From Gemmatimonadota bacterium (GTDB lineage: Bacteria; Gemmatimonadota; Gemmatimonadetes; Longimicrobiales; Longimicrobiaceae): a stretch of 64,000 nt of DNA. The stretch is from assembly GCA_028287185.1 (NCBI GenBank), contig JAQBQD010000043.1, positions 1 through 64,000 on the forward strand. The letters are read 5' to 3'. Position 1 is the stretch's first letter. The number at the start of each line of letters is the position of its first letter. Below the pieces are notes generated by a model. The model searched no databases and was not told where the DNA came from. It was given only the letters and a program-made list of their open reading frames with translations. Positions 2,215 to 44,213 of the stretch are shown here, one piece after another. The position numbers and the translations under genes are program-made.

Positions 2215-2219
2215 CACGC

Positions 2220-5200
2220 GTGGTAGGCGCGGAAACCCGTGTGTCGGCCAGCGTTGTGCGTCCCGCGGCGACCCGGTGGGAGTGCGCGCACCAGGCGTTC
2301 GAGGCGAACGTCGTCTCCGCGCCGGACGCGGAGGCCGTCGTGGTGGGCGAGCGGCGGGCGACGTACGCGGAGCTGGACCGTCACGCGCGGGCCGTCGCCG
2401 CGCGGCTGCGGGCGCTGGGCGTGGGGCCCGAGCGGCGCGTGGTGGTGCTGATGGAGCCGGGGCCGGCGTTCGCCGCGGCGCTGCTCGGTGTGCTGAAGGC
2501 GGGCGGCGCGTACGTGCCCATCGACCCCGAGTACCCGGCCGAGCGCATCGCGTGGGTGCTGGAGGACTCCGCGGCGGCGGCCGTCCTTACGCACGCGGAG
2601 GCCGCGCACCGCCTTCCATCGACGGCGCTCCCCGTCGTCGACGTCCAAACCCTCGACCTCGCGCTCGGGGACGGGTTTGTCGCGGTGGACGTGGATCCCG
2701 ACAACCTGGCATACGTCATCTACACTTCCGGCAGCACGGGGCGGCCCAAGGGTGTGGGCGTGACGCACCGCTCGCTGGTGTCGCTGCAGCGTGTGGCCGT
2801 GGAGCTGTACGGGATGACGGCGGGCGACCGCATGGGGCAGCTCCCGTCCGTAGGCTTCGACATGAGCGTGGAGCCGATCTGGTCCACGTGGACGGCGGGC
2901 GCGGCGCTGCACTTCCGCCCGCGCGGCGTGCCCGCGCTGGGGCCGGGGTTCTGGCGGTGGGTGGAGGCCGAGGGGATCACGATCCTCAATCCCCCGACCG
3001 CGCTGTGGCATGCGTGGGTGGCGGACATGGCGGCGTCCGGCGTGCGCGTGCCGGCTTCCGTGCGCCTGCTGATCACGGGCGGCGAGAAGCCGCAGGGGGC
3101 CGCCCTCGCACGCTGGCGGGAGATCGCGCCCGGCGTGCGGTGGATGAACTGCTATGGACCCACGGAGGCGACGGTCTGGGCCACCACGTGGGAGCTTCCC
3201 GCCGGGGGCTGGGACGGCGACCCGCCCATCGGCACTGCGCGGGCGAACGCCTCCGTGGAGGTCGTCGGGACCGACGGCGAACCGGCGGAGGAAGGCGAGG
3301 TGTGCGTGGGCGGCGTGGCCGTGGCGCGGGGCTACCTGGGCCGCGCGGCGCTGACGGCGGAGCGGTTCGTCCCCGACCCGGTCTCGACGGAGCCCGGCGC
3401 GCGGATGTACCGCACGGGCGACCGCGTGCGGGTGCGGCCGGACGGCGCGCTGGAGTTCGTAGGGCGCGTGGACGAGCAGGTGAAGGTGGGCGGCTACCGT
3501 GTGGAGCCGGGCGAGGTGGAGGCGGTGCTTTCCGAGCACCCGGCCCTGGCCGCCGCCGCTGTGGCGGCGCGGCGCGGAGACGACGGCGCGGCGCGGCTGC
3601 ACGGCTGGGCGGTCGAGCGCGAAGGCGTGTCGGCGGACCCGGCAGCGCTGCGAGCCTGGCTGCGCGAGCGGCTGCCCGCGTACATGGTGCCCAGCACGCT
3701 GACGATGCTGGACGCGCTGCCGCTGAACGCGCACGGCAAGATCGACCGACGTGCACTTCCGACGTCGGCGGTGGAGTCCGCGGATTCTGCGGAAATCCTG
3801 GCCGACGCGGGCGAGACGGTGCGCGGGGTGGTGGAGATCTTCCGCGAGGTGCTGGCCGTAGCGGTGGGGGCGGAGGACGACTTCTTCGACGCGGGCGGGC
3901 ACTCGCTGCTGGGCATGCTGGTGCTGTCGCGCGTGCGGCAGAGATGGGGCGTGGAGCTGCCGGTGCGCGCGGTGTTCGAGGCGCGCACGGCTGCCGCGCT
4001 GGCCGAGCGGATCGACGCGTCGGCCCGCACCGCCGGGCAGCCGCCGCTCGTCCGCGTTCCGAGATACGGCGCGCTCCCGCTCTCCTTCCAGCAGCAGGGC
4101 CTCTGGCTGGTCCATCAGATGGAGCGGCCGGGGATCGCGTTCTACAACATCCCGCTGGCCGTGCGCCTCACCGGCGAGCTGGACGTCGACGGGTTGCGCC
4201 GCGCGCTGGGCCAGGTGGTGCGCCGCCACGAGGCGCTCCGAACGACGTTTCGCTCCACCGCGGCGGGCGTGGAGCAGGTGGTGAACCCCGCATCCCCCGC
4301 TTTCCCGCTTCCGCTGAGCGACCTTTCCGCGCTGCCGTACGATGCAGCCGAGGCGCAGGCGCAGCGCATCGCCACCGCGGAGGCGTCGACGGCGTTCGAC
4401 CTGTCGCGGGACGGCGTGCTGCGCGGGCGGCTGGTCCGCATCGGCCGTGACGAGCACCTGCTGCTGCTGACGGTGCACCACATCGCGGCCGACGGGTGGT
4501 CGATCGGCGTGCTGTTCCGGGAGATGGCGGCGCTCTACGAGGCGTTCCGCGAGGGCCGCCCATCGCCTCTCCCCGACCTGCCGGTGCAGTACGCGGACTT
4601 CGCGGCGTGGCAGCGCGGGTGGCTGAGCGACGAGGTGCTGGCGCCGCAGCTGGCGTACTGGCGCGCGCGCCTGGCGGACGCGCCGCGAGTGATGGAGCTG
4701 CCGACGGACCGGCCTCGGCCGACCGAGGGGCGCCACCGCGGCGGGATGCTGCGCTTCTCCGTCCCGGCGGACCTCGCCGCGCGGCTGCGGGAGACGGCGC
4801 GGCGGCACGACGCGACGACGTTCATGGTGCTGCTGGCCGCCTTCGACCTGCTGCTGCACCGGCTGGGCGGCGGGGACGACCTCGTCGTCGGCTCGCCGGT
4901 CGCCGGGCGGGCGCGGCCCGAGACGGAGGGGCTGATCGGCTTCTTCATCAACACCGTCGCGCTGCGGACGGACCTGGGCGGCGATCCCACGCCGGCGGAG
5001 TTGATCGGCCGCGTGCGCGAGGCCACGCTGGAGGCGTACGCGCACCAGGACCTGCCGTTCGAGCGGGTGGTGGAGGCGCTGCATCCGGACCGCGCGGCGG
5101 GGCTGAACCCCGTCTTCCAGGCGTCGTTCGCCCTGGGCAACGTGGAGATGGCGCCGGTGGACCTACCGGGCGTGCGCGTGCAGCCGCAGGACGTGCACAG

Positions 5201-7322
5201 CGGCACGGCCAAGTTCGACCTGTTCCTGGAGATGCACGAGCACGGCGGCGCGCTGCGTGGAGATTTGGAGTACGCGGCGGACCTGTGGGAGCCGGCGACG
5301 GCGGAGCGCATGGCCGCGCTGTACGTGCTCCTGCTGGAGGCGCTGGCGGACGACGCGGACCGTCCGCTCTCCGCGGCGCTTGCGGCGGCGGACGGGGCGG
5401 ATGCGCGCGCGGAGGCGGAGGCGTGGAACCGCACGGCGCGCGGCTATCCGCGCGAATCCACCATCCACGCGCGCTTCGCGGAGATCGCGGCGGAGCGGAC
5501 GGAGGCGGTGGCGCTGTCGTGGGACGGGGGGGAGATGACGTACGGGGAGCTGGACGCGCGTTCCAATCGCCTCGCCCACCACCTCGTCGGCAACGGTCTG
5601 CGGCCGGACCAGCCGGTTGCGGTGCTGCTGAACCGCTCGCCGGAGCTGGTCGTGGCGTTCCTGGCGGCGCTGAAGGCCGGGGGCGCGTACGTTCCCCTCA
5701 ACCCGCACTACCCCGCGGCCCGCACGGCGCTGATGCTGGACGACTGCCGCGCGCGCGTCCTCGTGACGGACCGCGCCTTCCTCGCCGACCTGCCGGCCGA
5801 TCGTCCGCCGACGGTGCTCGTGGACGACGCGGCGATCGATGCGGAATCGGCCGAGCCGACGTCCGTCGAGGTGCCCGCGGACGGCGCGGCCTACGTCATC
5901 TACACGTCGGGATCAACCGGGCGTCCGAAGGGCGTGGTGGTGCCCCACCGCGCGGTGCTGCGCCTGGTGCTGAACGCGGACTACGCGGAGCTCGGGGCGG
6001 GGGAGACGTGGCTGCAGATGGTGCCTGCGTCGTTCGACGTTTCGACGCTGGAGGTGTGGGTGCCGCTGCTGAACGGCGGGCGCAGCGCGATGTATCCGCC
6101 CGTGACGCCGGACCCGGCGGAGATCGGCGCGTTCATCCGCCGCCACGGGGTGACGTCGGCGTGGCTGACGTCGGCACTCTTCCACCAGGTGGTGGACCAG
6201 GACGTGGGCGCCTTCGCCCCGCTGCGGCAGCTGCTGTCGGGCGGTGACGTGGTGTCCGCGCCGCACGCCCGGCGCGTGCTGGACGCGTTCCCGGGCCTGC
6301 GGCTGATCAACGGCTACGGACCCACGGAGAACACGACGTTCTCCACCTGCCGTACCGTGACGCGCGACGACCTGGAGCGCGTCTCCATCCCCATCGGCGT
6401 GCCCGTGGCGAGCTCCACCGCGTACGTGCTGGACGAGCGCATGCGGCCGGTGCCGGCGTGCGTGCCCGGCGAGCTGTACGTGGGCGGCGACGGCGTGGCG
6501 CGTGGCTACCTGAACCAGCCCGCGCTCACCGCCGGGCGCTACGTGCCGGACCCGTTTGCCGCCACCCCCGGCGCGCGCCTCTATCGGACGGGAGACCGCG
6601 CGCGGCGGCGGGCGGACGGTGCGCTGGAGTTCCTGGGCCGCATCGACCAGCAGGTGAAGATCCGCGGCCACCGCACCGAGCCGGGCGAGCTGGAGGCGGT
6701 GCTGGAGCGGCATCCCTCCGTCGCGAGCGCCGTCGTCGTCGTGCGCGGGGACGCGGGGGGCGACCGGCGGCTGGCGGCGTACGTCGTTCCCGCGCGCACG
6801 GCCGACGCGCGCGATCTGCCGGCGCACCTGCGCGAGCACGTGCGCGGGGTGCTGCCGGAGCACATGGTGCCCGCGTCCGTGACGGTGATGGATGCGATCC
6901 CGCTGACGGCCAACGGCAAGGTGGACCGCCGCGCCCTGCCCGAGCCGGAGCCGCTTCGGCCGGACGAGGCGGACGGGACGGAGCCGTCGACCGAGACGGA
7001 GCGGCGGCTGGCCGGGATGTGGGGCGAGCTGCTGCGCGTGGAGCGGGTGTACGCGGACGACCACTTCTTCGCGCTGGGCGGGCACTCGCTGCTGGCGGCG
7101 CAGATGGCGGCGCGCGTGCGTGAGGAGCTCGGAGTCGGCCTGTCGCTGCCCGCCGTGCTGAAGGCGGGCACCGTGGCCGCGCTGGCCGCGGCCGTGGACG
7201 CGGAGGTCGCGGCCGTGCAGGCGGAGCTGGAAGCCGAGCTGGCGGGGCTGAGCGACGAGGAGGTTCGCGCGCTGCTGGAGGCGGAGGAGGCGTGGGACGG
7301 CTCCACGGTGAGGGGAGGCTGA
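2220..7322 (+). CDS. NRPS, modules 1-2 (A-T-C-A-T)
   Basis: Initiating non-ribosomal peptide synthetase of 1700 residues. It starts directly with an adenylation domain (about 20-515; A3 motif YTSGSTGRPKG, then YRTGDR and GKIDRRAL), a carrier domain (GGHSLLG, about 560-600), a condensation domain (about 615-1050; active site HHIAADG), a second A domain (about 1085-1575) and a second carrier (GGHSLLA, about 1610-1650). An acidic helical tail containing LSDEEVRALL follows and may dock to the next protein. There is no starter condensation or formylation domain, so the chain probably begins as a free amino acid. Pocket residues read by eye are D-M-E-L-I-G-C-V-W for module 1 (unassigned) and D-V-L-W-L-G-G-T-F for module 2 (close to Val). 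The start is GTG 2220; GTG 2175 is the longer alternative. The next gene begins seven bases after the stop, so the two are surely co-transcribed. Confidence 0.93.
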   Translation: MVGAETRVSASVVRPAATRWECAHQAFEANVVSAPDAEAVVVGERRATYAELDRHARAVAARLRALGVGPERRVVVLMEPGPAFAAALLGVLKAGGAYVPIDPEYPAERIAWVLEDSAAAAVLTHAEAAHRLPSTALPVVDVQTLDLALGDGFVAVDVDPDNLAYVIYTSGSTGRPKGVGVTHRSLVSLQRVAVELYGMTAGDRMGQLPSVGFDMSVEPIWSTWTAGAALHFRPRGVPALGPGFWRWVEAEGITILNPPTALWHAWVADMAASGVRVPASVRLLITGGEKPQGAALARWREIAPGVRWMNCYGPTEATVWATTWELPAGGWDGDPPIGTARANASVEVVGTDGEPAEEGEVCVGGVAVARGYLGRAALTAERFVPDPVSTEPGARMYRTGDRVRVRPDGALEFVGRVDEQVKVGGYRVEPGEVEAVLSEHPALAAAAVAARRGDDGAARLHGWAVEREGVSADPAALRAWLRERLPAYMVPSTLTMLDALPLNAHGKIDRRALPTSAVESADSAEILADAGETVRGVVEIFREVLAVAVGAEDDFFDAGGHSLLGMLVLSRVRQRWGVELPVRAVFEARTAAALAERIDASARTAGQPPLVRVPRYGALPLSFQQQGLWLVHQMERPGIAFYNIPLAVRLTGELDVDGLRRALGQVVRRHEALRTTFRSTAAGVEQVVNPASPAFPLPLSDLSALPYDAAEAQAQRIATAEASTAFDLSRDGVLRGRLVRIGRDEHLLLLTVHHIAADGWSIGVLFREMAALYEAFREGRPSPLPDLPVQYADFAAWQRGWLSDEVLAPQLAYWRARLADAPRVMELPTDRPRPTEGRHRGGMLRFSVPADLAARLRETARRHDATTFMVLLAAFDLLLHRLGGGDDLVVGSPVAGRARPETEGLIGFFINTVALRTDLGGDPTPAELIGRVREATLEAYAHQDLPFERVVEALHPDRAAGLNPVFQASFALGNVEMAPVDLPGVRVQPQDVHSGTAKFDLFLEMHEHGGALRGDLEYAADLWEPATAERMAALYVLLLEALADDADRPLSAALAAADGADARAEAEAWNRTARGYPRESTIHARFAEIAAERTEAVALSWDGGEMTYGELDARSNRLAHHLVGNGLRPDQPVAVLLNRSPELVVAFLAALKAGGAYVPLNPHYPAARTALMLDDCRARVLVTDRAFLADLPADRPPTVLVDDAAIDAESAEPTSVEVPADGAAYVIYTSGSTGRPKGVVVPHRAVLRLVLNADYAELGAGETWLQMVPASFDVSTLEVWVPLLNGGRSAMYPPVTPDPAEIGAFIRRHGVTSAWLTSALFHQVVDQDVGAFAPLRQLLSGGDVVSAPHARRVLDAFPGLRLINGYGPTENTTFSTCRTVTRDDLERVSIPIGVPVASSTAYVLDERMRPVPACVPGELYVGGDGVARGYLNQPALTAGRYVPDPFAATPGARLYRTGDRARRRADGALEFLGRIDQQVKIRGHRTEPGELEAVLERHPSVASAVVVVRGDAGGDRRLAAYVVPARTADARDLPAHLREHVRGVLPEHMVPASVTVMDAIPLTANGKVDRRALPEPEPLRPDEADGTEPSTETERRLAGMWGELLRVERVYADDHFFALGGHSLLAAQMAARVREELGVGLSLPAVLKAGTVAALAAAVDAEVAAVQAELEAELAGLSDEEVRALLEAEEAWDGSTVRGG

Positions 7323-7329
7323 GGCGGAG

Positions 7330-10300
7330 ATGACGGACGTCGCGAACCGCCCGCAGGATCTATCGCCGGAGCGCCGCCGGCTGCTGGAGCTGCGGATGCG
7401 CGCCCGGCAGGCGCAGGCCGCCGGCCCCGAGCTGCACCCCCGCGCCCGCCCGGACGGCACGGCGCCGCTCTCCGCCTCGCAGGCGCGGCTGTGGGTGCTG
7501 GACCGCATGGAGCCCGGCAACGGCGACTATTCGGCGTCGCTGCCCCTGCGCGTCCGCGGGCCGCTGGACGTGGACGCGCTCCGCCGCGCGCTGGAGACGG
7601 TGGTCGGGCGGCACGAGTCGCTGCGCACCACCTTCACCGAGCGCGACGGCGTGCCGGTGCAGGTGATCCATCCGCCGAAGCCCGTTCCGCTGGTCGCCGC
7701 CGATCTCTCCGCCCTGTCCGCGGACGGGCGCGAGGCGGAGGTGCGCCGGCGCGCGGACGTGGACGCGGGGACGGGGTTCGACCTGGAGGCGGGGCCCGTC
7801 TTCCGCGCCACGTTGCTGCGGCTGGGGGACGAGGACCACGCGTTGTTGCTGACGATGCACCACATCGTCACCGACGGGTGGAGCATGGGCGTGCTCGCGC
7901 GCGAGGTGGGCGAGGCCTACGCCGCCCACCGCGAGGGCCGCGCGCCCGAGCTGCCCCCGGTACCGGTGCAATACGCGGACTTCGCGGCGTGGGAGCACGA
8001 GCTGCTGCGCGGCGCGGAGCTGGAGCGGCTGGCGGCGTTCTGGCGCGAGGCGCTGGCGGGTGCGCCGCCGTCGCTCGACCTGCCGGCGGACCACCCGCGC
8101 CCGCCCCGCGCGAGTCGCGCGGGAGGCCTGGCGCACGCGCGGATCACGCCCGCGCTGGCGGAGCGGCTGCGGGCCTTCGCGCAGGGGCAGGACGCCACGC
8201 TCTTCCACGTGCTGATGGCGGCGTTCCGCGTCGTCCTCGCCCGCCACTCGGGGCAGGACGACGTGGTGATCGGCACGCCGCTGGCCAACCGGCCGCGGAG
8301 CGTGCTGGACGGGCTGATCGGCTTCTTCGTGAACACCGTTCCCCTGCGCGGCCGGGTGCGCGCGGACGCGACCTTCGCGGAGATGGTGCGGGCGGAGAAG
8401 CAGACGGCGTACGCGGCCGCGCAGCATGCGGGGCTGCCGTTCGACCGGATGGTGGAGGAGCTTCGCGTGACGCGCGACCCGGCGCGGAACCCGGTGTTCC
8501 AGGCGATGCTGGCCTTGCAGAACACGCGCACGGAGCCGCCGGCGCTGGCCGGCGCGGAGGTGACGCAGATCGACTCCGACGCCGGGGTCGCGCGCTTCGA
8601 GCTGACGCTGGACCACTGGCTGGACGCGGACGGCGGAATCGGCGTGCACGCCGAGTTCGCGCGCGAGGTGTTCGACGCCGCCACGGTGGATCGCATCCTC
8701 GACCACTTCGTCCATGTTCTGGAGCAGGGCTGCGCAACCCCGCACACCCGCCTCGCCGGGCTGCGCCATGCGCCGGACGCCGAGGTCGCGCAGGCGGAGG
8801 CGTGGGGGCGCGGCGCCGTCGACCTGCCGTGCACCGAGACGCTGCACGGGATGATCGCGGCGCAGGCGGCGCTCACGCCGGACGCCCCGGCACTGGCGTG
8901 GGACGGCGGATCGCTGACGTACGCGGAGATGGTGGCTCGCGCGGAGATCCTCGCGCGCCGGCTGCGGGGCATGGGGGTGGGCCCGGAGAGCGTCGTCGGG
9001 ATGATGCTTCCGTCGTCGCCCGAGGCCGTCGTCGCCATCCTGGGCATCCTGCGGGCGGGCGGCGCGTACCTGCCGCTCGATGCGGCGAATCCCCCGGCCC
9101 GCATCGCCCACGCGCTCGCGGACTCCCGCGCCGTGGCCGTCGTCGGCTATCCGGCCGGCGCGGCGCTCGCCTCCGATCTTCCGTTCGTCGCGATCACGGG
9201 CCTCGAATCGTTCGCCGGCATCGAAGAATCGACCGACTCGACCGACTCGGCGGACTCGGCAGACTCGGCAGACTCGGCAGACTCGGCAGACTCGGTTGGG
9301 CCGGGGGATGCGGAGGATGCACTGTCCGCCGAGGTCCGCGCGGAGAGCCTGGCGTACGTCATCTACACGTCCGGGTCGACGGGCACGCCGAAGGGCGTCG
9401 GGGTGGCGCACGGGCCGGCGGCGATGCATGCGCGGGCGGTGGCGCGGGAGTACCGGCTGCGCGCGGACGACCGGTGCCTGGGATTCGCGGCGCTGACCTT
9501 CGACGCGTCGGTGGAGCACATCTTCGGCACGTTCGCGGCGGGCGCGTGCCTGGTCCCACGGACGGAGGTGTGGGGGCCGGCGGAGCTGGCGCGGCACGTG
9601 GAGCGGCTGGGGATCACGGCCGCGCTGACCTCCACCGGCTACTGGACGCAGCTCACCCACGACGACGCCGTGCTGTCGTCGCTGCGCGGAAACTTGCGGC
9701 TGCTCTCCACGGGCGGCGAGGAGATGCGGGCGGACGCGGCGTGCGCGTGGTACGCCAGGCCCGGCGGCGCGCAGCTCGACAACGCTTACGGGCCCACGGA
9801 GGCGGTGGTCACCGCCGCGTTCTTCCGCGTGCCGCAGGACTTCGCCGCGTCGAACCCGGCGCGCGTTCCCGTCGGCGGGCCGATCTCCGGGCGCACGCTG
9901 CGGGTGCTGGATGACGCGCTGAACCCCGTCGGCATCGGCGTGCCGGGCGAGCTGTGCATCGGAGGGTTCGGCCTGGCGCGCGGGTACCTGGGGCGGCCGG
10001 CGCTGACGGCCGAGCGCTTCGTGCCCGACCCCGCTGGCGAGCCGGGGGCGCGGATGTACCGTACCGGGGACCGTGCCCGGTGGCGCGAGGACGGCCTGCT
10101 GGACTACCTGGGGCGCGCGGACGAGCAGGTGAAGGTGCGGGGCTACCGCATCGAGCTGGGCGAGGTGGAGGCCGCGCTCCGCACGCACTCCTCCGTCGTG
10201 GACTGCGCCGTGGCTGCGCGGCCGGACGCCTCCGGGACGCTGAACCTGGTCGCGTACGTCGTCCCTGGCGGCGGCGCGCTGCCCGATCCCGCGGAGCTGC

Positions 10301-13300
10301 GCGCGCACCTGGCGGCGCGGCTGCCGGAGTACATGCTGCCCGCCGCCTTCGTCGTGATCGGCGCCATCCCGCTGACGACGGCCGAGAAGGTGGACCGCCG
10401 CGCCCTTCCGGAGCCGGCGACGGTGGACGCCGCGCGCTCCTTCGCCCGGCCGGAGACGCCGGACGAGGTCGCGCTGGCGGCGATCTGGACGGAGCTGCTG
10501 GGTGTCGAGAGGGTCGGCGCGGAGGACGACTTCGTATCGCTGGGCGGGCACTCGCTGCTGGGCGTGCGCGTGATCTCGCGGATCGCCGGACGCCTGGGCG
10601 TGGAGGTGCCGCTGCGCGCGGTGTTCGAGGCGCCGACGGTCCGCACGCTCGCCCGCCGAGTGGCGGATGCCCGCGCGTCCACGGGCGTGTCGAGGACGGC
10701 TCCGATCCCGCGGGCGGACCGCTCGGCGCCCCTGCCGGCGTCGTTCGCGCAGGAGCGGATGTGGTTCCTGCAGCAGCTCGATCCCGGCTCGGCCGCGTAC
10801 AACATCGCGCTCGCGCTGCGGCTGCATGGCGGGCTGGATTCGGACGCGCTTCGCCGCGCGCTGGCCGAGGTCGTCCGCCGCCACGAGGTGCTGCGCACGG
10901 GGTTCGCCGCGGGCGAGGCCGGGCCGGTGCAGGTGGTGATGGGGGACGACGCGTTCGGCTGGGAATCCATCGACCTGTCGCACCTCACGCCCGATGTAGG
11001 GGGGGCGGAGGCGGCACGGCGAGCGGAGGCCGATGCCCGCGAGCCGTTCGACCTCGCGCGCGGGCCGGTGATGCGCGCGGTCCTCGTGCGCATTTCGGCC
11101 CACGAGCACGTGCTGTCGCTGGCGATGCACCACGTCGCGAGCGACGCGTGGTCGTGGGAGGTGATGAACCGCGAGCTGGGCGCGCTGTACGCCGCGTTCC
11201 GCGAGGGCCGTCCATCGCCCCTGCCCGAGCTGCCGGTGCAGTACGCGGACTTCGCGGCGTGGCAGCGCGGATGGCTGCGCGGTGCGGAGATGGAGCGGCA
11301 GGCGGCGTTCTGGCGCGAGCGGCTGGCGGGCGCTCCGGCGGTGCTGGAGCTGCCCACGGACCGGCCCCGCCCGGCCGTGCAGGACCTGCGCGGCGCCCTG
11401 CACCCGTTCCGTATTCCCGCGGACGTGGCGGATGCCGCGCGGGCGCTGGCGGCGAGCGAGCGCGCGACGCCGTTCATGGTGCTGCTGGCCGCGTTCGCCG
11501 TCGTGCTCCAGCGCTGGAGCGGCGACGACGACGTGGTGGTCGGCACGCCCGTCACCAGCCGTCCGCGGGCCGAGCTGGAGCCGCTGATCGGCTTCTTCAG
11601 CAACACGCTGCCCGTCCGCGCAAGCCTGGCCGGCCGCCCCGCCTTCCGCGAGGTGCTGCGCCGGGTGCGCGAGACCGCGGTGGACGCGTTCGCGCACCAG
11701 GACCTGCCGTTCGAGCGGATGGTGGACGAGGCGAAGGCGGAGCGCAGCCTGAGCCACACGCCGCTCTTCCAGGTGATGTTCTCGCTCCAGCACGGCTCCG
11801 CGACGGAGCTGTCGCTGCCGGGCATCACCGCGACGGACGCCGGCGTCGACCCCGGCACGTCGCGCTACGACCTGACCGTGCTGCTGAGCGACGGGCCCGC
11901 CGGCGCCCTCGACGGCCAGGCGGAGTTCGCCACCGCGCTGTGGGACGAGCCGACCATCGCCCGGCTGACGGCGCACCTCGCCGCCCTCCTCGGCGCGGCG
12001 ACGGCGGACCCGGACGCGCCCGTCGCCACGCTGCCCCTGCTGCCGGCGGACGAGCACGCGCGGGTGGTCAACGTCTTCAACCGCACCGAGATCGAGCTCG
12101 ACGGCAGGCTCGTCCATCACCTCGTCTCCGATACCGCCGCTCGGACGCCCGACGTGGTCGCCGTCGAGCACGCGGGCGAGTCCGTCACCTACGCGGAGCT
12201 GGAGGCACGCGCGAATCGCCTGGCGCACCGGCTCGTGCGCCTGGGCGTCGGCCGGGACGTGCGTGTGGCAGTGGCGCTGGAGCGGTCCATCGACATGGTC
12301 ACCGCCGTGCTCGCGGTGCTGAAGGCAGGCGGGTGCTACGTCGCGGTCGATCCGGCGTATCCCGCGGACCGAATCGCCTACATGCTGGCGGACAGCCGCG
12401 CGGCCGTGGTGCTCACGACGTCCGTCGTCGCGGCGCGGCTGCCGGCGACGGACGCCACGGTCCTGCGCCTCGACGCCGCCGACCTTTCCGCCGAGCGGAC
12501 GGATGCGCCGCGGGTAGAGGTCGACGCCGAGAGCCTGCTGTACGTGCTGTACACCTCCGGCTCCACGGGCCGGCCGAAGGGCGCCGCGCTGCCGCACCGC
12601 GCGCTGGCGAACGTGATCCGCTGGCAGGTGGCGCGCTGGCGGGATGATGCGCCCGCGCGGACGCTTCAGTTCGCGTCGCTGTCGTTCGACGTGTCGTTCC
12701 AGGAGATCTTCTCCACCTCGGCCGCCGGCGGCACGCTCGTGCTGATCGGCGACGACGCGCGACGCGACGCGGAGGCGCTCATCCGCCACCTGCGCGAGCA
12801 TCGCATCGAACGCCTGTTCCTGCCGTTCGCGGCGCTCCAGAACCTCGCCGAAGCGGCGGAAGGGGGCGACGCGCATCTCCCCCATCTGCGCGCCGTCATC
12901 ACCGCCGGGGAAGCGCTGCGCTCCACGCCGCAGCTCCGCGCCTTCTTCCGCGCGAACCCGCGGGCGGCGCTGGAGAACCAGTACGGGCCCAGCGAGACGC
13001 ACGTCATCTCCGCACACGTGGTCGACGGTGACCCGGAGGCGTGGCCGGCGCTGCCGCCAGTCGGCGCGCCGGTGGCGAACACGCGGCTGTACGTGATGGA
13101 TGGCGAGATGCAGCCCGCGCCCATCGGCGTGCCCGGCGAGCTGTTCGCGGGCGGGGCCAACCTGGCCCGCGGGTACCTCGATCGACCCGCGCTGACGGCC
13201 GAGCGCTTCATCCCCGATCCGTTCTCCGCCACGCCCGGCGCGCGCCTGTACCGCACGGGCGACCGGGTGAAGTGGCGCGCGGACGGGGCGCTGGAGTACG

Positions 13301-16300
13301 TGGGGCGGACGGACTTCCAGGTGAAGGTGCGCGGCTTCCGGGTGGAGCCGGGCGAGGTGGAGGCGGCGCTGACGGAGCATCCCGCCGTCGTCCAGGCCGC
13401 CGTCGTGGCGCGGGGCGAGGGCGCGGAGCGGCGGCTGGCGGCGTACGTCGTCCCCGCCGCAGGCGCCGCGCCGACGGTGGCGGAGCTGCGCGCGCACCTG
13501 GCCGCCCGGTTGCCGGAGCACATGGTGCCGCGCGGGTGGCGGGTGATGGATGCGCTCCCGCTGACGCTCAGCGGCAAGGTGGACCGCCGCGCCCTCCCTG
13601 AGCCCGACGCCGCGCCGGCCGACGAAGGCCGCGTGGAGGCGCGCACGCCGGCGGAGGAGATGGTGGCGGACGCGTGGCAGGCGGTGCTGAAGGTGCGGCC
13701 CGGCGCCCACGACAACTTCTTCACGCAGGGCGGGCACTCGCTGGCCGCGACGCAGGTGGTGGCGCGCATCCGCCGCGCGTTCGGCATCGACCTGCCGCTC
13801 CGCGCGCTGTTCGAGGCGCCCACCGTCGCCGGGCTGGCGGTGCGCGCGGCGGATGCGCGGCGGGGCGGCCACCTCCAGCTTCCTCCGCTGCTCCCAGTCG
13901 ATCGGGGAGCCGAGGCACCGCTGTCGTTCGCCCAGCAGCGCTTCTGGTTCGTGGAACGTATGGGTGCCGCGGGCGGGGCGTACAACATCCCCCTCCTGCT
14001 GACCCTCCGCGGGGAGCTGGACGTCGCCGCACTCCGCGCCGCGCTCGACGGCCTCGTCGCCCGGCACGAGGCGCTGCGGACCACGTTCCACCTGCGCGGC
14101 GGCCAGCCGGTGCAGGTCGTCGCTCCGGAGCACTCGGTCGATCTGCATCTCCACGACCTCGCCGGGCCCGACGGGTCGGCTGATGCGCGCGCGCACGCGG
14201 AGGCGGACCGCATCTCACGCGCGGAGTGGGAGGCGCCGTTCGACCTGGCGCGGGGTCCGCTGATGCGGGCGCGGCTTCTCCGCATGGCGGCGGATGAGCA
14301 CCGGCTTCTGCTCACCTTCCATCACGTTGTCTGCGATGCCTGGTCGCTGAACGTGGCGTTCCGCGAGCTGGGCGAGCTGTACGGGGCGGCGGTGGAGGGA
14401 AGGGAGGCGGATCTGCCGCCGCTGCCGGTTCAGTACGCCGACTACGCCATCTGGCAGCGCGAGCGGCTGGACGGCGCCTCGCTGGAGGCGGAGCTGGGCT
14501 ACTGGCGCACGCGGCTGGACGGCGCGGCGGTGATGGAGCTGCCGACGGACCGTCCGCGGCCGCCCGTGCAGGGCTTCCGCGGCGCGATGGTGCCGTTTCG
14601 CCTGGGCGCGGAGACGGCCGCGGGCGTGGCCGCACTCGCGCGGAGCGAGGGCGCGACGCCGTTCATGGTGCTGCTCGCCGCCTTCGACGTGCTGCTGTCG
14701 CGCTGGACGGGGGTGGAGGACGTCGTCGTCGGCTCCCCCGTCGCCGGGCGCGTGCCGGAGGAGACGGAGCCGCTGGTCGGTGTCTTCGTGAACACCCTGG
14801 CGCTGCGCACGGACGTCGGAGGAAATCCCAGCTTCCGCGAGGTGGTGTCGCGGGTGCGGGAAGCGACGCTGGACGCGTACGCCCACCAGGAGGTGCCGTT
14901 CGAGCGGCTGGTGGAGGAGCTGAAGGTGGGCCGCAGCCTGGACCGGCATCCGCTGTTCCAGGTGATCTTCTCCATGCACGCCGGCGGGTTCACGGCGCCG
15001 GAGATGCCGGGCCTGTCGGTTGCCGTGGCCGAGGGGGAAGGGGACACCAGCAAGGTCGATCTCGTCCTCGCGATGTCCGAGGATGCTGGCGAGCTGGACG
15101 GCGTCTTCCAGTACGCATCCGACCTGTTCGACGAGACGACCATCCGGCGGATGGCGTCGCACCTGGCAGCGCTGCTGGACGCCGCGCTGGCGGACCCCGC
15201 GCGCCCGGTCGCCGCGCTGCCGCTGATGCCGGCCGAGGAAGCCGCGCGGCTGGACACCTTCCACGGCGCGGCGGCGGACTATCCGCGCGGCGCCACGCTG
15301 CCCGCGCTGTTCGAGGTGCAGGCCGCGCGCACGCCTGACGCGATCGCCATCCGGTGGAACGGCGCCGCGACGACGTACGCGGAGCTGAACGCGGCGGCGA
15401 ATCGGCTGGCGCACCGGTTGATCGCGCTCGGCGTCGGCCCGGAGGTGCGCGTCGCGGTGTGCATGGAGCGCACGCCGGAGATGGTGGCCACGCTGCTGGC
15501 GGTGCAGAAGGCGGGCGGCGGGTACGTGCCCATCGACCCGGCGTACCCGGCGGATCGCATCGCCTACATGCTGGAGGATTCCGGCGCGTCTGTGCTGCTG
15601 ACCCACGCGCGCATCGCCGACCGGCTGCCGCCGTTCACCGGGACCACGATCCGGGTGGACGCCGATCGCGCGGAGATCGATCGTCAGCGCGCGGAGAATC
15701 CGTGCGTCCCGGTCGATCCGCGCAACCTCGCGTACGCCATCTACACCTCCGGATCGACGGGCCGGCCGAAGGGCGTGCAGATCGAGCATCGCAGCGCGGC
15801 GACGCTCGTCCACTGGCTTCGCGGACACGTGTCCGACGATGAACGGCGGGCGGTGCTGGCATCCACCTCCATCTCGTTCGACGTCTCCGTCGCGGAGATC
15901 TTCGGCACGCTGTGCTGGGGCGGCACGATCGTGCTCGTCCGCGACGCGCTGGCGCTGGCGGAGACGCGGGAGCCGGTGGTGCTCGCCAGCATGGCTCCCA
16001 GCGCCGCCGCCGAACTGCTGCGCATGGGCGCCATCCCGCCGACGCTGCGCGTGCTGAACCTGGGCGGAGAGGCACTGCCGAACGCGCTGGCCCAGGGGCT
16101 TCACGCGCTCGGCACGGTGCAGCGCGTGGGCAACTTCTACGGGCCCACGGAGGATACGACGTACTCCACGTGGTCGATCGTGGAGCGCGGGGCGAGCCGC
16201 GTCTACGTGGGCCGCCCCGTGGCGAACACGCGGGCGTACGTGCTGGATCGCAACCTCCGGCGCGTTCCCCTCGGCGTGCCCGGCGAGCTGTGGCTGGCTG

Positions 16301-17115
16301 GCGACGGCCTGGCGCGCGGCTATCACGACCGCCCGACGCTCACGGCGGAGCGCTTCGTCCCCGATCCGTTCTCCGCAGAGGAAGGCGCGCGCATGTACCG
16401 CGTGGGCGACCTCGTCCGCTGGAGGCTGGACGGGCAGCTCGAGTACCTGGGACGTCTCGACCACCAGGTGAAGATCCGCGGCCACCGGGTGGAGACGGGC
16501 GAGATCGAGGCCGTTCTCGCCGGACACCCGCGCGTCCGCGAGGCCGCCGTCGCCGCGCGCGAGGACGTGCCGGGCGATGCGCGGCTGGTGGCGTACGTCG
16601 TCGCGGCGGACGCATCGACCGAACCCACGCCCGCGGAGCTGCGCGAGCACCTGAAGGCGCGTCTGCCGGAGTACATGGTGCCCGCCGCGTGGGTGATGAT
16701 GGACGCGCTGCCGCTGAACCCCAACGGCAAGGTGGACCGCCTGCGCCTTCCCGCGCCGGGCGAGCGCGAGCGCACCCCGGCCGACGCCGCGCCGCGCACG
16801 GAGACGGAGCAGACCGTCGCCCGCGTGTGGCGCGAAGTCCTTGCCATTCCGCACGTGGGCGTGGACGAGAACTTCTTTGAGATCGGCGGCCATTCGCTGC
16901 TGCTGGCGCGCCTTCAGGAGCGGCTGAACGAGACCTTCGGAAGCTCGCTGAGCTTCGTCGACCTCTTCCAATTCTCCACCGTCGCCGCCCTTTCCGAGCG
17001 CCTGGCGCCGCCCGTGTCCACGGTGGACGATAGCGCGTCCGATGTCCCCGCGCCGAGCCCGACACCCGGCCGCGGAACCAGCCGCCGCGAGATGGTGCGG
17101 CGCGGGAGACGGTAG
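7330..17115 (+). CDS. NRPS, modules 3-5 (C-A-T x3)
   Basis: Elongating synthetase of 3261 residues with three C-A-T modules. Condensation sites are HHIVTDG (about 177), HHVASDA (about 1267) and HHVVCDA (about 2331); the last two have Ala in place of the usual Gly. Carrier sites GGHSL lie near 1070, 2135 and 3187. Pockets read D-A-E-L-S-G-A-V-T (module 3, unassigned; Glu at the third position sometimes accompanies basic side chains), D-V-Q-F-I-A-Q-V-I (module 4, close to Pro codes) and D-V-A-M-N-G-F-T-Y (module 5, unassigned). The first A domain holds a Ser-Asp-Ala repeat insert at about 633-656, just before its YTSGSTG loop, and has AEKVDR where NGKVDR is usual. The protein ends in a strongly basic tail (SRREMVRRGRR) that could dock to the acidic N-terminus of the PKS. 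Start ATG 7330, with a GGCGGAG site just in front. Confidence 0.94.
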   Translation: MTDVANRPQDLSPERRRLLELRMRARQAQAAGPELHPRARPDGTAPLSASQARLWVLDRMEPGNGDYSASLPLRVRGPLDVDALRRALETVVGRHESLRTTFTERDGVPVQVIHPPKPVPLVAADLSALSADGREAEVRRRADVDAGTGFDLEAGPVFRATLLRLGDEDHALLLTMHHIVTDGWSMGVLAREVGEAYAAHREGRAPELPPVPVQYADFAAWEHELLRGAELERLAAFWREALAGAPPSLDLPADHPRPPRASRAGGLAHARITPALAERLRAFAQGQDATLFHVLMAAFRVVLARHSGQDDVVIGTPLANRPRSVLDGLIGFFVNTVPLRGRVRADATFAEMVRAEKQTAYAAAQHAGLPFDRMVEELRVTRDPARNPVFQAMLALQNTRTEPPALAGAEVTQIDSDAGVARFELTLDHWLDADGGIGVHAEFAREVFDAATVDRILDHFVHVLEQGCATPHTRLAGLRHAPDAEVAQAEAWGRGAVDLPCTETLHGMIAAQAALTPDAPALAWDGGSLTYAEMVARAEILARRLRGMGVGPESVVGMMLPSSPEAVVAILGILRAGGAYLPLDAANPPARIAHALADSRAVAVVGYPAGAALASDLPFVAITGLESFAGIEESTDSTDSADSADSADSADSADSVGPGDAEDALSAEVRAESLAYVIYTSGSTGTPKGVGVAHGPAAMHARAVAREYRLRADDRCLGFAALTFDASVEHIFGTFAAGACLVPRTEVWGPAELARHVERLGITAALTSTGYWTQLTHDDAVLSSLRGNLRLLSTGGEEMRADAACAWYARPGGAQLDNAYGPTEAVVTAAFFRVPQDFAASNPARVPVGGPISGRTLRVLDDALNPVGIGVPGELCIGGFGLARGYLGRPALTAERFVPDPAGEPGARMYRTGDRARWREDGLLDYLGRADEQVKVRGYRIELGEVEAALRTHSSVVDCAVAARPDASGTLNLVAYVVPGGGALPDPAELRAHLAARLPEYMLPAAFVVIGAIPLTTAEKVDRRALPEPATVDAARSFARPETPDEVALAAIWTELLGVERVGAEDDFVSLGGHSLLGVRVISRIAGRLGVEVPLRAVFEAPTVRTLARRVADARASTGVSRTAPIPRADRSAPLPASFAQERMWFLQQLDPGSAAYNIALALRLHGGLDSDALRRALAEVVRRHEVLRTGFAAGEAGPVQVVMGDDAFGWESIDLSHLTPDVGGAEAARRAEADAREPFDLARGPVMRAVLVRISAHEHVLSLAMHHVASDAWSWEVMNRELGALYAAFREGRPSPLPELPVQYADFAAWQRGWLRGAEMERQAAFWRERLAGAPAVLELPTDRPRPAVQDLRGALHPFRIPADVADAARALAASERATPFMVLLAAFAVVLQRWSGDDDVVVGTPVTSRPRAELEPLIGFFSNTLPVRASLAGRPAFREVLRRVRETAVDAFAHQDLPFERMVDEAKAERSLSHTPLFQVMFSLQHGSATELSLPGITATDAGVDPGTSRYDLTVLLSDGPAGALDGQAEFATALWDEPTIARLTAHLAALLGAATADPDAPVATLPLLPADEHARVVNVFNRTEIELDGRLVHHLVSDTAARTPDVVAVEHAGESVTYAELEARANRLAHRLVRLGVGRDVRVAVALERSIDMVTAVLAVLKAGGCYVAVDPAYPADRIAYMLADSRAAVVLTTSVVAARLPATDATVLRLDAADLSAERTDAPRVEVDAESLLYVLYTSGSTGRPKGAALPHRALANVIRWQVARWRDDAPARTLQFASLSFDVSFQEIFSTSAAGGTLVLIGDDARRDAEALIRHLREHRIERLFLPFAALQNLAEAAEGGDAHLPHLRAVITAGEALRSTPQLRAFFRANPRAALENQYGPSETHVISAHVVDGDPEAWPALPPVGAPVANTRLYVMDGEMQPAPIGVPGELFAGGANLARGYLDRPALTAERFIPDPFSATPGARLYRTGDRVKWRADGALEYVGRTDFQVKVRGFRVEPGEVEAALTEHPAVVQAAVVARGEGAERRLAAYVVPAAGAAPTVAELRAHLAARLPEHMVPRGWRVMDALPLTLSGKVDRRALPEPDAAPADEGRVEARTPAEEMVADAWQAVLKVRPGAHDNFFTQGGHSLAATQVVARIRRAFGIDLPLRALFEAPTVAGLAVRAADARRGGHLQLPPLLPVDRGAEAPLSFAQQRFWFVERMGAAGGAYNIPLLLTLRGELDVAALRAALDGLVARHEALRTTFHLRGGQPVQVVAPEHSVDLHLHDLAGPDGSADARAHAEADRISRAEWEAPFDLARGPLMRARLLRMAADEHRLLLTFHHVVCDAWSLNVAFRELGELYGAAVEGREADLPPLPVQYADYAIWQRERLDGASLEAELGYWRTRLDGAAVMELPTDRPRPPVQGFRGAMVPFRLGAETAAGVAALARSEGATPFMVLLAAFDVLLSRWTGVEDVVVGSPVAGRVPEETEPLVGVFVNTLALRTDVGGNPSFREVVSRVREATLDAYAHQEVPFERLVEELKVGRSLDRHPLFQVIFSMHAGGFTAPEMPGLSVAVAEGEGDTSKVDLVLAMSEDAGELDGVFQYASDLFDETTIRRMASHLAALLDAALADPARPVAALPLMPAEEAARLDTFHGAAADYPRGATLPALFEVQAARTPDAIAIRWNGAATTYAELNAAANRLAHRLIALGVGPEVRVAVCMERTPEMVATLLAVQKAGGGYVPIDPAYPADRIAYMLEDSGASVLLTHARIADRLPPFTGTTIRVDADRAEIDRQRAENPCVPVDPRNLAYAIYTSGSTGRPKGVQIEHRSAATLVHWLRGHVSDDERRAVLASTSISFDVSVAEIFGTLCWGGTIVLVRDALALAETREPVVLASMAPSAAAELLRMGAIPPTLRVLNLGGEALPNALAQGLHALGTVQRVGNFYGPTEDTTYSTWSIVERGASRVYVGRPVANTRAYVLDRNLRRVPLGVPGELWLAGDGLARGYHDRPTLTAERFVPDPFSAEEGARMYRVGDLVRWRLDGQLEYLGRLDHQVKIRGHRVETGEIEAVLAGHPRVREAAVAAREDVPGDARLVAYVVAADASTEPTPAELREHLKARLPEYMVPAAWVMMDALPLNPNGKVDRLRLPAPGERERTPADAAPRTETEQTVARVWREVLAIPHVGVDENFFEIGGHSLLLARLQERLNETFGSSLSFVDLFQFSTVAALSERLAPPVSTVDDSASDVPAPSPTPGRGTSRREMVRRGRR
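9226..9297 (+). repeat. 9-base tandem repeat (GACTCGGCA type), 8 units
   Basis: Eight consecutive 9-base units run from GAATCGACC through four exact GACTCGGCA copies to GACTCGGTT. In frame they encode Glu/Asp-Ser-Thr/Ala/Val. They sit in a surface loop of the module-3 adenylation domain ahead of its A3 motif. Because the unit is a multiple of three, copy-number change does not break the gene. Confidence 0.95.
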
Positions 17116-17245
17116 ACCGGGCGATGCATCTCCATCGCGCGACGCGTTTCGGACGTCGGTCGCGAAAGAAACGGAAGCAGGACGCGCAGCATCCATCGAC
17201 CAATCGGGCCTTTCTCGCGGCCCTGCATGGAGATAGACGGACTAC

Positions 17246-20200
17246 ATGAGCACCGATCTCGACGCGCAGTCCCATCATCCGCAGCCCGACGCCGCATCCG
17301 ACGCGGCGGCGGAGTTCGACGCGTCCGGCGCGAGCGACCTGGACGTGGCCATCGTCGGCATGGCGGGCCGCTTTCCGGGCGCGGACGACCTGGACGCGTT
17401 CTGGGCCAACCTCCGCGATGGGGTGGAGTCCATCTCCTTCTTCACGGACGACGAGATGCGGGCCGCGGGCGTGTCCGAGGCGGAGCTCACGCATCCGGAC
17501 TACGTGAAGGCCATCGGGCGTCTGCGCGACGTGGAGCACTTCGACGCCGGCTTCTTCGGCTACAGCCCGCGCGAGGCGGAGGTGCTGGAGCCCGGCCATC
17601 GCCTGTTCCTGGAAGTCGCGTGGGAGGCGCTGGAGGACGCGGCGGTGGACCCCGCGCGCGTGGCGGGGCGTGTGGGCGTGTACGCGGGCGTGGGCTCCAG
17701 CGGCTACACCGAGCGCCACGTGAAGCCCAACGCGGCGCTCATGGAGTCCGCCGGCGACTTCCAGGTGAGCCTGGGCAGCGAGAAGGACTTCGTCGCCACG
17801 CGCACGTCGTACAAGCTGGACCTGCGCGGGCCCAGCCTGGCCGTGCAGACCGGGTGCTCCACCTCGCTGGTGGCCGTGCACCTGGCCGCGCAGAGCCTGC
17901 TGCGCGGCGAGTGCGACGTGGCGCTGGCGGGCGGCGCGTCCGTCATCGTCCCGCAGACCACGGGCTACACCTGGGCGCACGGCTCCATCGTCTCGCCGGA
18001 CGGGCACTGCCGCGCCTTCGACGCGCGCTCGGCCGGCGCGGTGTCGGGCAGCGGCGTGGGCGTGGTGGTGCTGAAGCGCCTGGACGATGCGCTGCGCGAC
18101 GGCGACCCGGTGCGCGCGGTGATCCGCGGAAGCGCCGTCAACAACGACGGCGGGGCGAAGGTGGCCTTCACCGCGCCGGGCGTGGAGGGCCAGGCGGCCG
18201 TCATCAAGGAGGCGCTGGAGGCCGCGGACGTGGAGCCGCAGACGGTGACGTACGTGGAGGCGCACGGCACGGGCACGGACCTGGGCGACGTGATCGAGAT
18301 CGCCGCGCTCACCCGCGCCTTCCGCGAGCGCACGGACCGCGCGGGCTTCTGCGCGGTGGGCTCGGTGAAGACCAACATCGGCCACCTGGATACCGCCGCG
18401 GGTATCGCCGGGCTCGTCAAGACGGTGCTGGCGATGGAGCACGCGCAGATCCCGCCCACGCTGCACTTCCAGGCGCCCAACCCGCGCATCGCCTTCGCCG
18501 CCGGCCCGTTCTACGTGGCCGCGGGCGAGACGGTGGCGTGGGAAACCGACGGCGGGCCGCGCCGCGCGGGCGTCAGCTCGTTCGGCATCGGCGGCACGAA
18601 CGCGCACGTGGTGCTGGAGGAGGCGCCCGCGCCGCAGCCGTCCGGCCCCTCGCGCCCCTGGCAGCTCCTGCTGACCAGCGCCCGCAGCGCCGCCGCCGCC
18701 CGCGATTCCACCGCGCGCCTGGCGGACCACGTCGAGCGGGATCCCGGCGAGCCGCTGGCGGACGTGGCGCACACGCTCCGCGAGGGGCGCCGCGCGTTCG
18801 CGCACCGGCGCATCGCCATCGTCCGCGAGGGGGAGGACGCGGCGGCCATCCTGCGTGGCGCCGTGCCGGAGCGTGTCGAGGCGGGCATCGCGGAGGCGGG
18901 CGCGCGCTCCGTCGCCTTCCTCTTCCCCGGCCTGGGCGACCATCACCCCAACATGGCGCGCGGGTTGTACGAGGCCGAGCCCGCGTTCCGCGCGGAGGTG
19001 GACCGGTGCGCCGCCATCCTCCGCCCGCTGCTGGGGATGGATATCCGCGAGGCCATCTTCGCCGGCGATGCGCCGTCCGACGAGGCGCCGAAGGCCGGCG
19101 GCTTCGACCTGCGGGGAATGCTGGCGCGCACGGCTCCTTCCGCCGAGTCGGAGAGGCTGAACCGCACCGCCATCGCGCAGCCCGCGGTGTTCGCCATCGA
19201 CTACGCGCTGGCGAAGCTGTGGATGAGCTGGGGCGTGGTGCCCGAGGCGGTGATCGGCCACTCGCTGGGCGAATACGCTGCCGCCTGCATCGCCGGCATC
19301 CTGTCGCTGAAGGACGCGCTCGCGCTGGTCGCGGGCCGCGCGCGCGCCATCGAGCCGCTGCCTGGTGGGGCGATGCTGGCCGTCTCGCTCGATCCGGACA
19401 CAGTCTATCCGTATCTCTCGACCGATGTGTCGATCGCCACGGTGAACGCGCCGGGGCTCTGCGTCGTCGCGGGACCGGAGGACGCGGTGGCATCCGTCGA
19501 GGCGCGGCTGGCGGCGGACGGGATCGTCGCGCGCAGGCTGGCGACCACGCACGCGTTCCACACGCCGATGCTTGCGCCGGCGGCGGGGCGCCTGGCGGAG
19601 ATCGCCGGCTCCGTGCGTCTGCGCGCGCCGCGCATCCCCATGGTCAGCAACGTGAGCGGAACCTGGATCACGGACGCGGAGGCGACGGACCCGGCGTACT
19701 GGACGCGGCACATGCTGGGCACCGTGCGCTTCGCGGAGGGCGTGGGCGAGCTGCTGCGCACCCCCGGCCGCGTGCTGCTGGAGGTGGGCCCCGGGCAGAC
19801 GCTTACGACGTTCGTGCGCCAGCGCCCGGGGGAGGGCGAGCAGGCCCCCGTCGCCGTGATCCCGTCCATGCGCTACGCCTACGACCGGCGGCCGGACCAG
19901 GCGGTGCTGCTGGAGGCGATGGGCCGCCTGTGGCTGGCCGGCGTGGCGCCGGACTGGACGGCGTTCCGCGGGCGCGAGCTGCGCCGCAAGCTCCATCTGC
20001 CGACGTACCCGTGGGAGAAGCAGCGCTACTGGGTCGATGCGCTCCCCGAGAACGCGCTCCCGTCCGCCCGCGCCAGCACGGACCCGGCGGACTGGACGTA
20101 CGTGCCCGACTGGCGCCGCGCTCCGGCTCCCGCGCCGTCGGCCGCCCTCGTCCGGATCCTCGTGGTGGCGGAGGACGACTCGGGCGATGCGCTCGCCGCG

Positions 20201-26574: not shown

Positions 26575-26783
26575 TCGGCGGATGGGTGAGGACCGTGATT
26601 GCGAACGCGGTCGACGGACGGAAGGTTCGCCCGCCGAGATGCGAGCGAGACCGTGGCCGCCGAGCCATCGGGTTGAAACCCGAGGCCGCAACTGCATATC
26701 CGCCGCCTTCGCGGGCTCGCTCCGCGCGGCGAAGGCCTCCTCGCGGACCGCAGGCATCGGCGTGCCGCGCGGAGCCTCGATCC

Positions 26784-26843
26784 CGCGCGGAGCCAGCCTC
26801 CGCAGGGAGGCTTCGCGCAGTCGTTGCCGCGGATTCATCCGCC
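26784..26843 (+). repeat. Dispersed intergenic repeat, copy 1
   Basis: About 60 bases containing GGAGCCAGCCTCCGCAGGGA and then CGTTGCCGCGGATTC. They match, in inverted orientation, the segment at 63514-63570 over nearly the whole length. Both copies lie between genes. The core can form a small stem (AGCCTCC/GGGAGGCT). It looks like a genome-wide intergenic family rather than a coding sequence. Confidence 0.65.
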
Positions 26844-26855
26844 TGTCGATGCCGA

Positions 26856-26884
26856 TGACGCCCGTTGACGCCCGGTGACGCCCG
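26856..26884 (+). repeat. Three direct repeats of TGACGCCCG
   Basis: TGACGCCCG occurs three times with a period of 10 bases, about one helical turn, ending 70 bases before the start of the largest NRPS gene. The even spacing would place three binding sites on one face of the DNA. A regulatory role is a guess from position. Confidence 0.5.
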
Positions 26885-26954
26885 GGGCGCAGGTCCACGG
26901 TTGATCCCCGAGATTGCCGTTGCACATCCACACCCCCACGGGTGCGAGACATAG

Positions 26955-44213
<17,259 letters not shown>

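What the first reader, a model, noticed from the sequence alone, without database searches (positions are those of the whole stretch)
2220..44213. Complete, apparently undescribed 11-module NRPS plus one-module PKS assembly line
Five co-directional genes encode, in order, A-T-C-A-T, (C-A-T)x3, KS-AT-degenerate KR-ACP, C-A-T-E and C-A-T-T-(C-A-T)x3-C-A-T-TE. Read as a line, they would make a chain of X1-Val-X3-Pro(?)-X5-(malonate-derived beta-keto C2)-D-Val-Val-Thr-Aad(?)-Ser-X12, released or cyclised by the thioesterase. The Thr and Ser side chains offer macrolactone sites. I do not recognise a known product with this order. Domain order is read directly; residue predictions are by-eye pocket readings.
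Basis: partly seen in the sequence, partly recalled or inferred. Interest (0 to 1): 0.85.

Follow-up and report, generated by a model that had tools for sequence, protein, structure and literature searches.

The report
Hybrid peptide-polyketide assembly line
Five neighbouring bacterial genes encode an apparently complete enzyme assembly line for an eleven-amino-acid peptide with one polyketide unit built in; it belongs to a family of related lines, and comparison with its closest relative shows that a block in the middle was exchanged during evolution.

Summary
Five unbroken co-directional genes (2175-44213) encode A-T-C-A-T | (C-A-T)x3 | KS-AT-KR*-ACP | C-A-T-E | C-A-T-T-(C-A-T)x4-TE: 11 amino-acid modules and one malonate module. 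Predicted backbone: basic-Val-basic-Pro-X-(malonate, keto kept)-D-Val-Val-Thr-Aad?-Ser-X. The Thr and Ser codes equal published ones; A9 matches the Lys2 (aminoadipate) profile best.

The line is not unique. G010:C65, from another genus of the same family, is its orthologue: modules 1-5, the PKS, modules 8-11 and the TE correspond, whereas the block between (gene 4 and the first module of gene 5) does not and G010 has one module more. A block was exchanged by nature. The KR lacks its catalytic tyrosine in 15 of 15 KR-bearing modules aligned. MIBiG was not available, so 'undescribed' rests on paper searches only.

Verdict: real, probably functional, a new member of a known kind. In passing: in relatives, not in the window line, palindromic repeats sit in frame at one loop of 38 of 109 A domains examined.

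The parts
2175..7322 (+). Gene 1, 1715 aa: module 1 A1-T1 (about 2352-4010, code DMENIGCVWK, basic Orn/Lys-like) and module 2 C1-A2-T2 (about 4071-7190, DVLWLGGTFK, Val-like)
7330..17115 (+). Gene 2, 3261 aa: module 3 (about 7456-10659, DAELSGAVTK, Arg-like), module 4 (10729-13845, DVQFIAQVIK, Pro-like), module 5 (13909-17001, DVASNGFTYK, unknown), each C-A-T
17246..21691 (+). Gene 3, 1481 aa: KS (about 17342-18625), AT with malonyl-type HAFH motif (18914-19945), degenerate KR (20672-21205), ACP (21398-21616)
21853..26574 (+). Gene 4, 1573 aa: C5-A6-T7 (about 21982-25137, DAFWLGGTFK, Val) and epimerisation domain E (25198-26487); not orthologous to gene 4 of G010:C65
26955..44213 (+). Gene 5, 5752 aa: C6-A7-T8-T9 (about 27111-30452, DALWMGGTFK, Val), then modules Thr (30522-33644, DFWSVGMVHK), Aad? 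(33714-36950, DPRHFVYRAK), Ser (37068-40181, DVWHMSLVDK), X (40245-43337, DPSDLGAVAK) and TE (43395-44210)
9235..9295 (+). 9-bp in-frame microsatellite (GACTCGGCA, 6.8 copies) in A3, encoding Asp-Ser-Ala repeats
36495..36558 (+). 9-bp in-frame microsatellite (GAATCGACG consensus, 7.1 copies) in A9, encoding Ser/Glu-rich repeats

Best explanation
A complete type I hybrid NRPS-PKS assembly line. Gene 1 loads a basic amino acid on an A-T start module and adds Val; gene 2 adds a basic residue, Pro and an unknown residue; gene 3 (KS-AT-KR*-ACP) adds one malonate unit without reduction, giving a 4-amino-3-oxo acyl unit from residue 5; gene 4 adds Val and epimerises it; the D-type C domain at the start of gene 5 takes up the D-Val chain and the gene adds Val, Thr, probably aminoadipate, Ser and an unknown residue; the TE releases the chain, by hydrolysis or by ring closure on Thr or Ser. 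It is one of a family of lines in its bacterial family and evolves by exchange of module blocks. Shown by sequence: domain order, motifs, orthology, C-domain types, loss of the KR tyrosine. Inferred: residues, order of action, release.
For: Domains and motifs. Codes: A8 and A10 equal the Thr and Ser codes DFWSVGMVHK and DVWHMSLVDK, A4 has the Val236/Gln239 of Pro domains, and A3 meets 8 of the 10 positions given for Arg in PMC12283262 (passages). A9 scores 503.9 bits with the Lys2 model TIGR03443 against 381.1 with the general A-domain model; the ten other A domains score 117.5-193.5 with TIGR03443. Tree of 76 C and E domains: gene 4's C lies in a clade (100/100) of 11 rows that holds all 9 labelled post-PKS; gene 5's first C lies in a clade (100/99) of 9 rows, 7 of them after an E. 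This fits the handover gene 3 to 4 to 5. The PKS is 78% identical over its length in G010, and codon-position divergence shows selection. KR: no Tyr at the catalytic place in 15 of 15 (the YxxxN motif is recalled). Block exchange: 8 of 10 window C domains have the G010 counterpart as sister (7 at 100/100, one at 100/94); C5 and C6 have other sisters.
Against: Residues 5 and 12 have no assignable code. The wider DPRH group blurs the Aad call: two relatives with other DPRH codes score 378.7 and 361.8 bits with the Lys2 model, and a published DPRHVSLLAK is for Asn. The genome has no match over cut-off for lysine 6-aminotransferase or LysX; only a saccharopine-dehydrogenase-like protein was found as a possible Aad source. 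C type and E presence do not agree everywhere: G010's gene 5 begins with a D-type C although its gene 4 has no E, and 2 of 9 rows labelled post-E lie outside the D clade. No MbtH in the contig; three elsewhere in the genome. Nothing shows expression or a product.
Confidence: 0.75

Rival explanations
1. The line makes the same backbone, but A9 activates another acidic or amide residue (Asn, Asp, Glu) and not aminoadipate.
For: DPRH codes occur for both Aad and Asn in PMC12283262 (passages and one section); relatives with codes DPRHAGFQAK and DPRHCGLQAK also score high with the Lys2 model; no clear Aad supply pathway found.
Against: The window's A9 and G010's copy score higher with TIGR03443 than with the general model, the two other DPRH domains do not; DPRHFVYRAK is identical in 9 A domains of 6 genomes; I recall the yeast Lys2 code as DPRHFVMRAK, 9 of 10 alike (recalled, no call).
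Confidence: 0.35
2. The line is a decaying relic that makes nothing.
For: Degenerate KR; microsatellites inside two A domains; no product known to me.
Against: Open frames, intact motifs in every counted C, A and T domain, and third-position-biased divergence over g1-g3 and g5; the KR loss is shared by the whole group aligned, so it is old.
Confidence: 0.08
3. The line is known under a MIBiG entry from a cultured relative.
For: Longimicrobium terrae has large NRPS/T1PKS clusters, with reported 'similarity' to ralsolamycin, crochelin A, microsclerodermin M and lysobactin (PMC7291104, whole text). I could not compare with it.
Against: Those similarities are 60% or less for the NRPS/T1PKS clusters in that table and no product is reported there; searches for the codes gave no paper.
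Confidence: 0.1

Closest known systems
   Same: A-T-C-A-T | (C-A-T)x3 | KS-AT-KR*-ACP at 73.5, 74.7 and 77.7% identity for genes 1-3; tail Thr-DPRHFVYRAK-Ser-X-TE with the same codes for Thr, A9 and Ser.
   Different: Gene 4 is C-A-T without E (code DIFHFGLILK); gene 5 starts with two other modules (DAWWLGGTF-, DALAMGLVTK), one module more in all; 10 of its 12 A domains carry loop inserts.
Other lines of the family: G011:C65, G017:C13, G011:C108, G014:C256/C218, G010:C152
   Same: KS-AT-KR*-ACP followed by C-A-T-E or C-A-T; Thr-DPRHFVYRAK-Ser also in G011:C65 and G014:C218; Pro-like then DVASNG-type code before the PKS also in G011:C65 and G011:C108.
   Different: G011:C65, G017:C13 and G010:C152 have two PKS modules; other residues.
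Fungal Lys2 / NCBIfam TIGR03443
   Same: A9 aligns to its A domain with 503.9 bits.
   Different: No reductase domain; the full-length cut-off of 1030 bits is not reached; here it is one module of a peptide line.
Longimicrobium terrae hybrid NRPS/T1PKS clusters
   Same: Hybrid NRPS/T1PKS clusters in a family I think is the window's (not shown by any search); PMC7291104, whole text.
   Different: Sequences not compared; module strings are not given in the paper.

Membership tests
Modular type I hybrid NRPS-PKS assembly line | Repeated C-A-T modules with intact core motifs | tested here: met
   11 A, 10 C, 12 PCP plus ACP
Modular type I hybrid NRPS-PKS assembly line | PKS module KS-AT-ACP with catalytic motifs | tested here: met
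Modular type I hybrid NRPS-PKS assembly line | Terminal release domain | tested here: met
   TE with GWSAGG at the end of gene 5 (class assigned from the motif, not by a Pfam scan of gene 5)
Reducing PKS module (active KR) | KR catalytic Tyr | tested here: not met
   absent in the window and in 14 of 14 other KR-bearing rows
Aminoadipate-activating A domain (Lys2 type) | Best match to the Lys2 A domain; PR-type pocket | tested here: met
   but see controls
Aminoadipate-activating A domain (Lys2 type) | Adenylation of Aad | not testable with these tools
   needs an enzyme assay
Any characterised MIBiG cluster | Same module string and codes | not testable with these tools
   MIBiG not held; paper searches only
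D-configured Val handover (E then D-type C) | C after E falls in a D-type clade | tested here: met
   100/99 clade, with two non-post-E members

The most novel reading that the evidence does not exclude
A family of keto-containing, aminoadipate-bearing cationic peptides is made by lines that share fixed ends (basic-Val-basic-Pro-X-malonate and Thr-Aad-Ser-X-TE) and exchange the block between them, each exchange bringing its own C (and E) types: the window and G010 are a natural before/after pair for module swapping. In a sister genus the same A domains were in addition invaded at one loop by hairpin-forming repeats, tolerated in frame, of which the window line is the insert-free state.
Probability: 0.4. 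Interest if true: 0.65.

Novelty: new member of a known kind. Interest (0 to 1): 0.45.

Why it matters
If the reading is right, this line and its G010 orthologue give exact natural boundaries for exchanging modules in an otherwise fixed NRPS-PKS line, between the PKS and the Thr module, which is what engineers of such enzymes look for. The predicted product (two basic residues near the start, an unreduced keto unit, Thr and Ser for ring closure, a rare aminoadipate) would be new chemistry from a bacterial group with, as far as I know, few characterised products.

Tried and rejected
That the window comes from Longimicrobiaceae is my recollection of such proteins, not a result.

Aad supply: lysine 6-aminotransferase and LysX models gave no match over cut-off; a saccharopine-dehydrogenase-like protein was found, too weak to support the Aad call.

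Co-conserved accessory genes: comparing flanks with six related regions gave a luciferase-like monooxygenase (48374-49423, minus strand) 50% identical to one 13 kb upstream of the G010 line; too common a family to count as part of the cluster. Twenty flanking ORFs were scanned with Pfam, a part of the mechanical ORF list; no transporter or MbtH family appeared among them.

A promoter/terminator scan of 26400-27100 found none. PMC11298585 came up for 'Lys2' only through residue numbers such as Lys2690 (passages). A paper search for in-frame palindromic elements listed Rickettsia papers (listing only).

A first domain annotation merged A with T because the A profile was too long; one search replaced it.

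A hand reading of A1 gave Leu at pocket place 4; the alignments gave Asn, which I use.

Full report
What is there. The window is the start of contig C92 (195,887 bases) of a 6.04-Mb draft genome in 225 contigs. Five genes on the plus strand, separated by 7, 130, 161 and 380 bases, encode the line: 2175-7322 A-T-C-A-T, 7330-17115 (C-A-T)x3, 17246-21691 KS-AT-KR*-ACP, 21853-26574 C-A-T-E, 26955-44213 C-A-T-T-(C-A-T)x4-TE. Motifs of C, E, A, T, KS and AT are in place. The two T domains in tandem in gene 5 share 39 of 75 residues.

Residues. Codes at the ten pocket positions, read from an alignment: A1 DMENIGCVWK, A2 DVLWLGGTFK, A3 DAELSGAVTK, A4 DVQFIAQVIK, A5 DVASNGFTYK, A6 DAFWLGGTFK, A7 DALWMGGTFK, A8 DFWSVGMVHK, A9 DPRHFVYRAK, A10 DVWHMSLVDK, A11 DPSDLGAVAK. 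PMC12283262 (passages and one section) gives DFWSVGMVHK for Thr and DVWHMSLVDK for Ser, Val236 and Gln239 as the mark of Pro, an Arg pattern that A3 meets at 8 of 10 positions, and DMEDVGSVDK for Orn/Lys, near A1. The Val reading of A2, A6 and A7 rests on recalled codes. A5 and A11 stay open. A9 matches the Lys2 model TIGR03443 with 503.9 bits against 381.1 for the general model; the ten other A domains have 117.5 to 193.5. As a control, two relatives with DPRHAGFQAK and DPRHCGLQAK have 378.7 and 361.8 bits, just below their general-model scores (379.3, 374.8), while G010's DPRHFVYRAK domain has 453.1 against 385.9. So A9 is of the Lys2 group and the most Lys2-like of those tried; that it takes aminoadipate is likely, not shown.

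PKS module. The AT has HAFH, the malonyl-type motif (recalled). The KR-like region lacks the catalytic Tyr in the window and in the 14 other KR-bearing modules aligned; two further modules in the alignment have no KR. The beta-keto group should stay, giving a 4-amino-3-oxo unit from residue 5.

Handover. In a tree of 76 C and E domains the 9 E domains are one clade. The C of gene 4 falls in a clade of 11 (100/100) with all nine rows labelled post-PKS; the other two are one whose preceding PKS fragment is cut by a contig end and one labelled post-E. The first C of gene 5 falls in a clade of 9 (100/99), 7 of them post-E. The tool warned that long branches meet between this clade and the E clade. 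Two rows labelled post-E lie elsewhere, and G010's gene 5 begins with a D-type C though its gene 4 has no E.

Relatives. Among 21 genomes of the family, 14 places in 7 genomes (window included) match gene 3 over nearly its whole length, 55-78% identical apart from itself (the weak end of that list was cut). Of 298 genomes drawn from the phylum, 23 have a match at E 1e-250 or better; near full-length matches were in family f1 only, and in the other 17 genomes the match did not reach the ACP (only two candidates were scored per genome). Fourteen regions from six relatives and the window's own genome were read. The code DPRHFVYRAK recurs in 9 A domains of 6 genomes, window included. Thr-DPRHFVYRAK-Ser occurs in 4 lines (window, G010:C65, G014:C218, G011:C65), and a Pro-like code followed by a DVASNG code before the PKS in 4 (window, G010:C65, G011:C65, G011:C108).

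Block exchange. Against G010:C65, genes 1-3 are 73.5, 74.7 and 77.7% identical; by domain the corresponding parts of modules 1-5 and the PKS range from 59% (A3) to 93% (ACP), and those of modules 8-11 and TE from 70 to 87%, A11 apart, whose G010 counterpart carries an insert and was not paired by BLAST (the aligned bins over A11 are 55-78%). Gene 4 is 53.9% identical and G010's lacks the E; the first module of gene 5 falls to 36-73% per 60-residue bin, and G010 has one module more. In the C tree 8 of 10 window C domains have the G010 counterpart as sister; C5 and C6 do not. The simplest reading is an exchange of the block from gene 4 to the first module of gene 5 in one of the two lineages. 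Which state is older is unknown.

Selection. Differences at codon positions 1, 2 and 3 between window and G010 are 0.169/0.156/0.348 in gene 1 and alike in genes 2, 3 and 5; gene 4, not orthologous, has 0.310/0.295/0.428.

Supply. Two phosphopantetheinyl transferase matches and three MbtH are elsewhere in the genome. For aminoadipate only a saccharopine-dehydrogenase-like protein was found.

Literature. PMC7291104 (whole text) reports 12 clusters in Longimicrobium terrae, several of them NRPS/T1PKS, without product. PMC8692599 (passages) notes highly divergent NRPS clusters in Gemmatimonadota. No paper was found for the DPRHFV code strings or for pairs of the recalled codes. These searches cover open-licence papers only, and codes in figures or supplements would be missed.

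Inserts in relatives. Of 109 A domains aligned, 38 have an insert of 10 residues or more at one loop between A7 and A8: G010:C65 10 of 12, G010:C152 7 of 8, G011:C65 9 of 12, G011:C108 9 of 17, G014:C218 2 of 7, G011:C25 1 of 4, window 0 of 11 and the other regions 0. Since only open frames were read, in-frame inserts are favoured by the method. Of nine inserts folded as RNA, eight gave -24 to -140 kcal/mol and one -2.4 (no shuffle control). The 19-mer GTGCGAAAGTGCGAGAGTG with up to two mismatches occurs 369, 547, 547, 551 and 263 times in G008, G010, G011, G014 and G015, 41, 15 and 3 times in G017, G012 and G013, 0 in G001 and once in the window's genome; the reversed control has 0 or 1 (overlapping matches in tandem arrays count separately). 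This resembles the palindromic elements known inside Rickettsia genes (recalled; one search was a listing).

Verdict. A real, intact and probably working line; a new member of a known kind, of more than usual interest for the clear block exchange.

Noticed in passing
Relatives: G010:C65 and C152 (L028-L031, L040, L041), G011:C65, C108, C25 (L034-L036, L042, L043, L067, L068, L070), G014:C218 (L065, L066): In-frame, mostly hairpin-forming palindromic repeats inserted at one loop between core motifs A7 and A8 in 38 of 109 A domains; the repeat occurs hundreds of times in five of the ten genomes searched but once in the window's genome.
   Followed up: partly
9235-9295, 36495-36558, 50458-50509, 55003-55068: Four 9-bp tandem repeats in the window; the first two lie in frame inside A3 and A9 and encode Ser/Asp/Glu-rich stretches.
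   Followed up: partly
47045-48268 (+): ORF with a MerR-type HTH at its start and a citrate synthase domain.
   Followed up: no
48371-49393 (-): Luciferase-like monooxygenase; a 50% identical protein lies 13 kb upstream of the G010 line.
   Followed up: partly
53661-57755 (-): Long ORF with HAMP and adenylate/guanylate cyclase domains.
   Followed up: no
G000 contigs C208, C43, C157, C103, C48 and others: The same genome holds many more NRPS/PKS genes: 91 matches to gene 3, most of them single carrier-domain matches.
   Followed up: partly
G010:C65 gene 4 (L029) and gene 5: Gene 4 has no E domain, yet the next C domain is of the D type.
   Followed up: no
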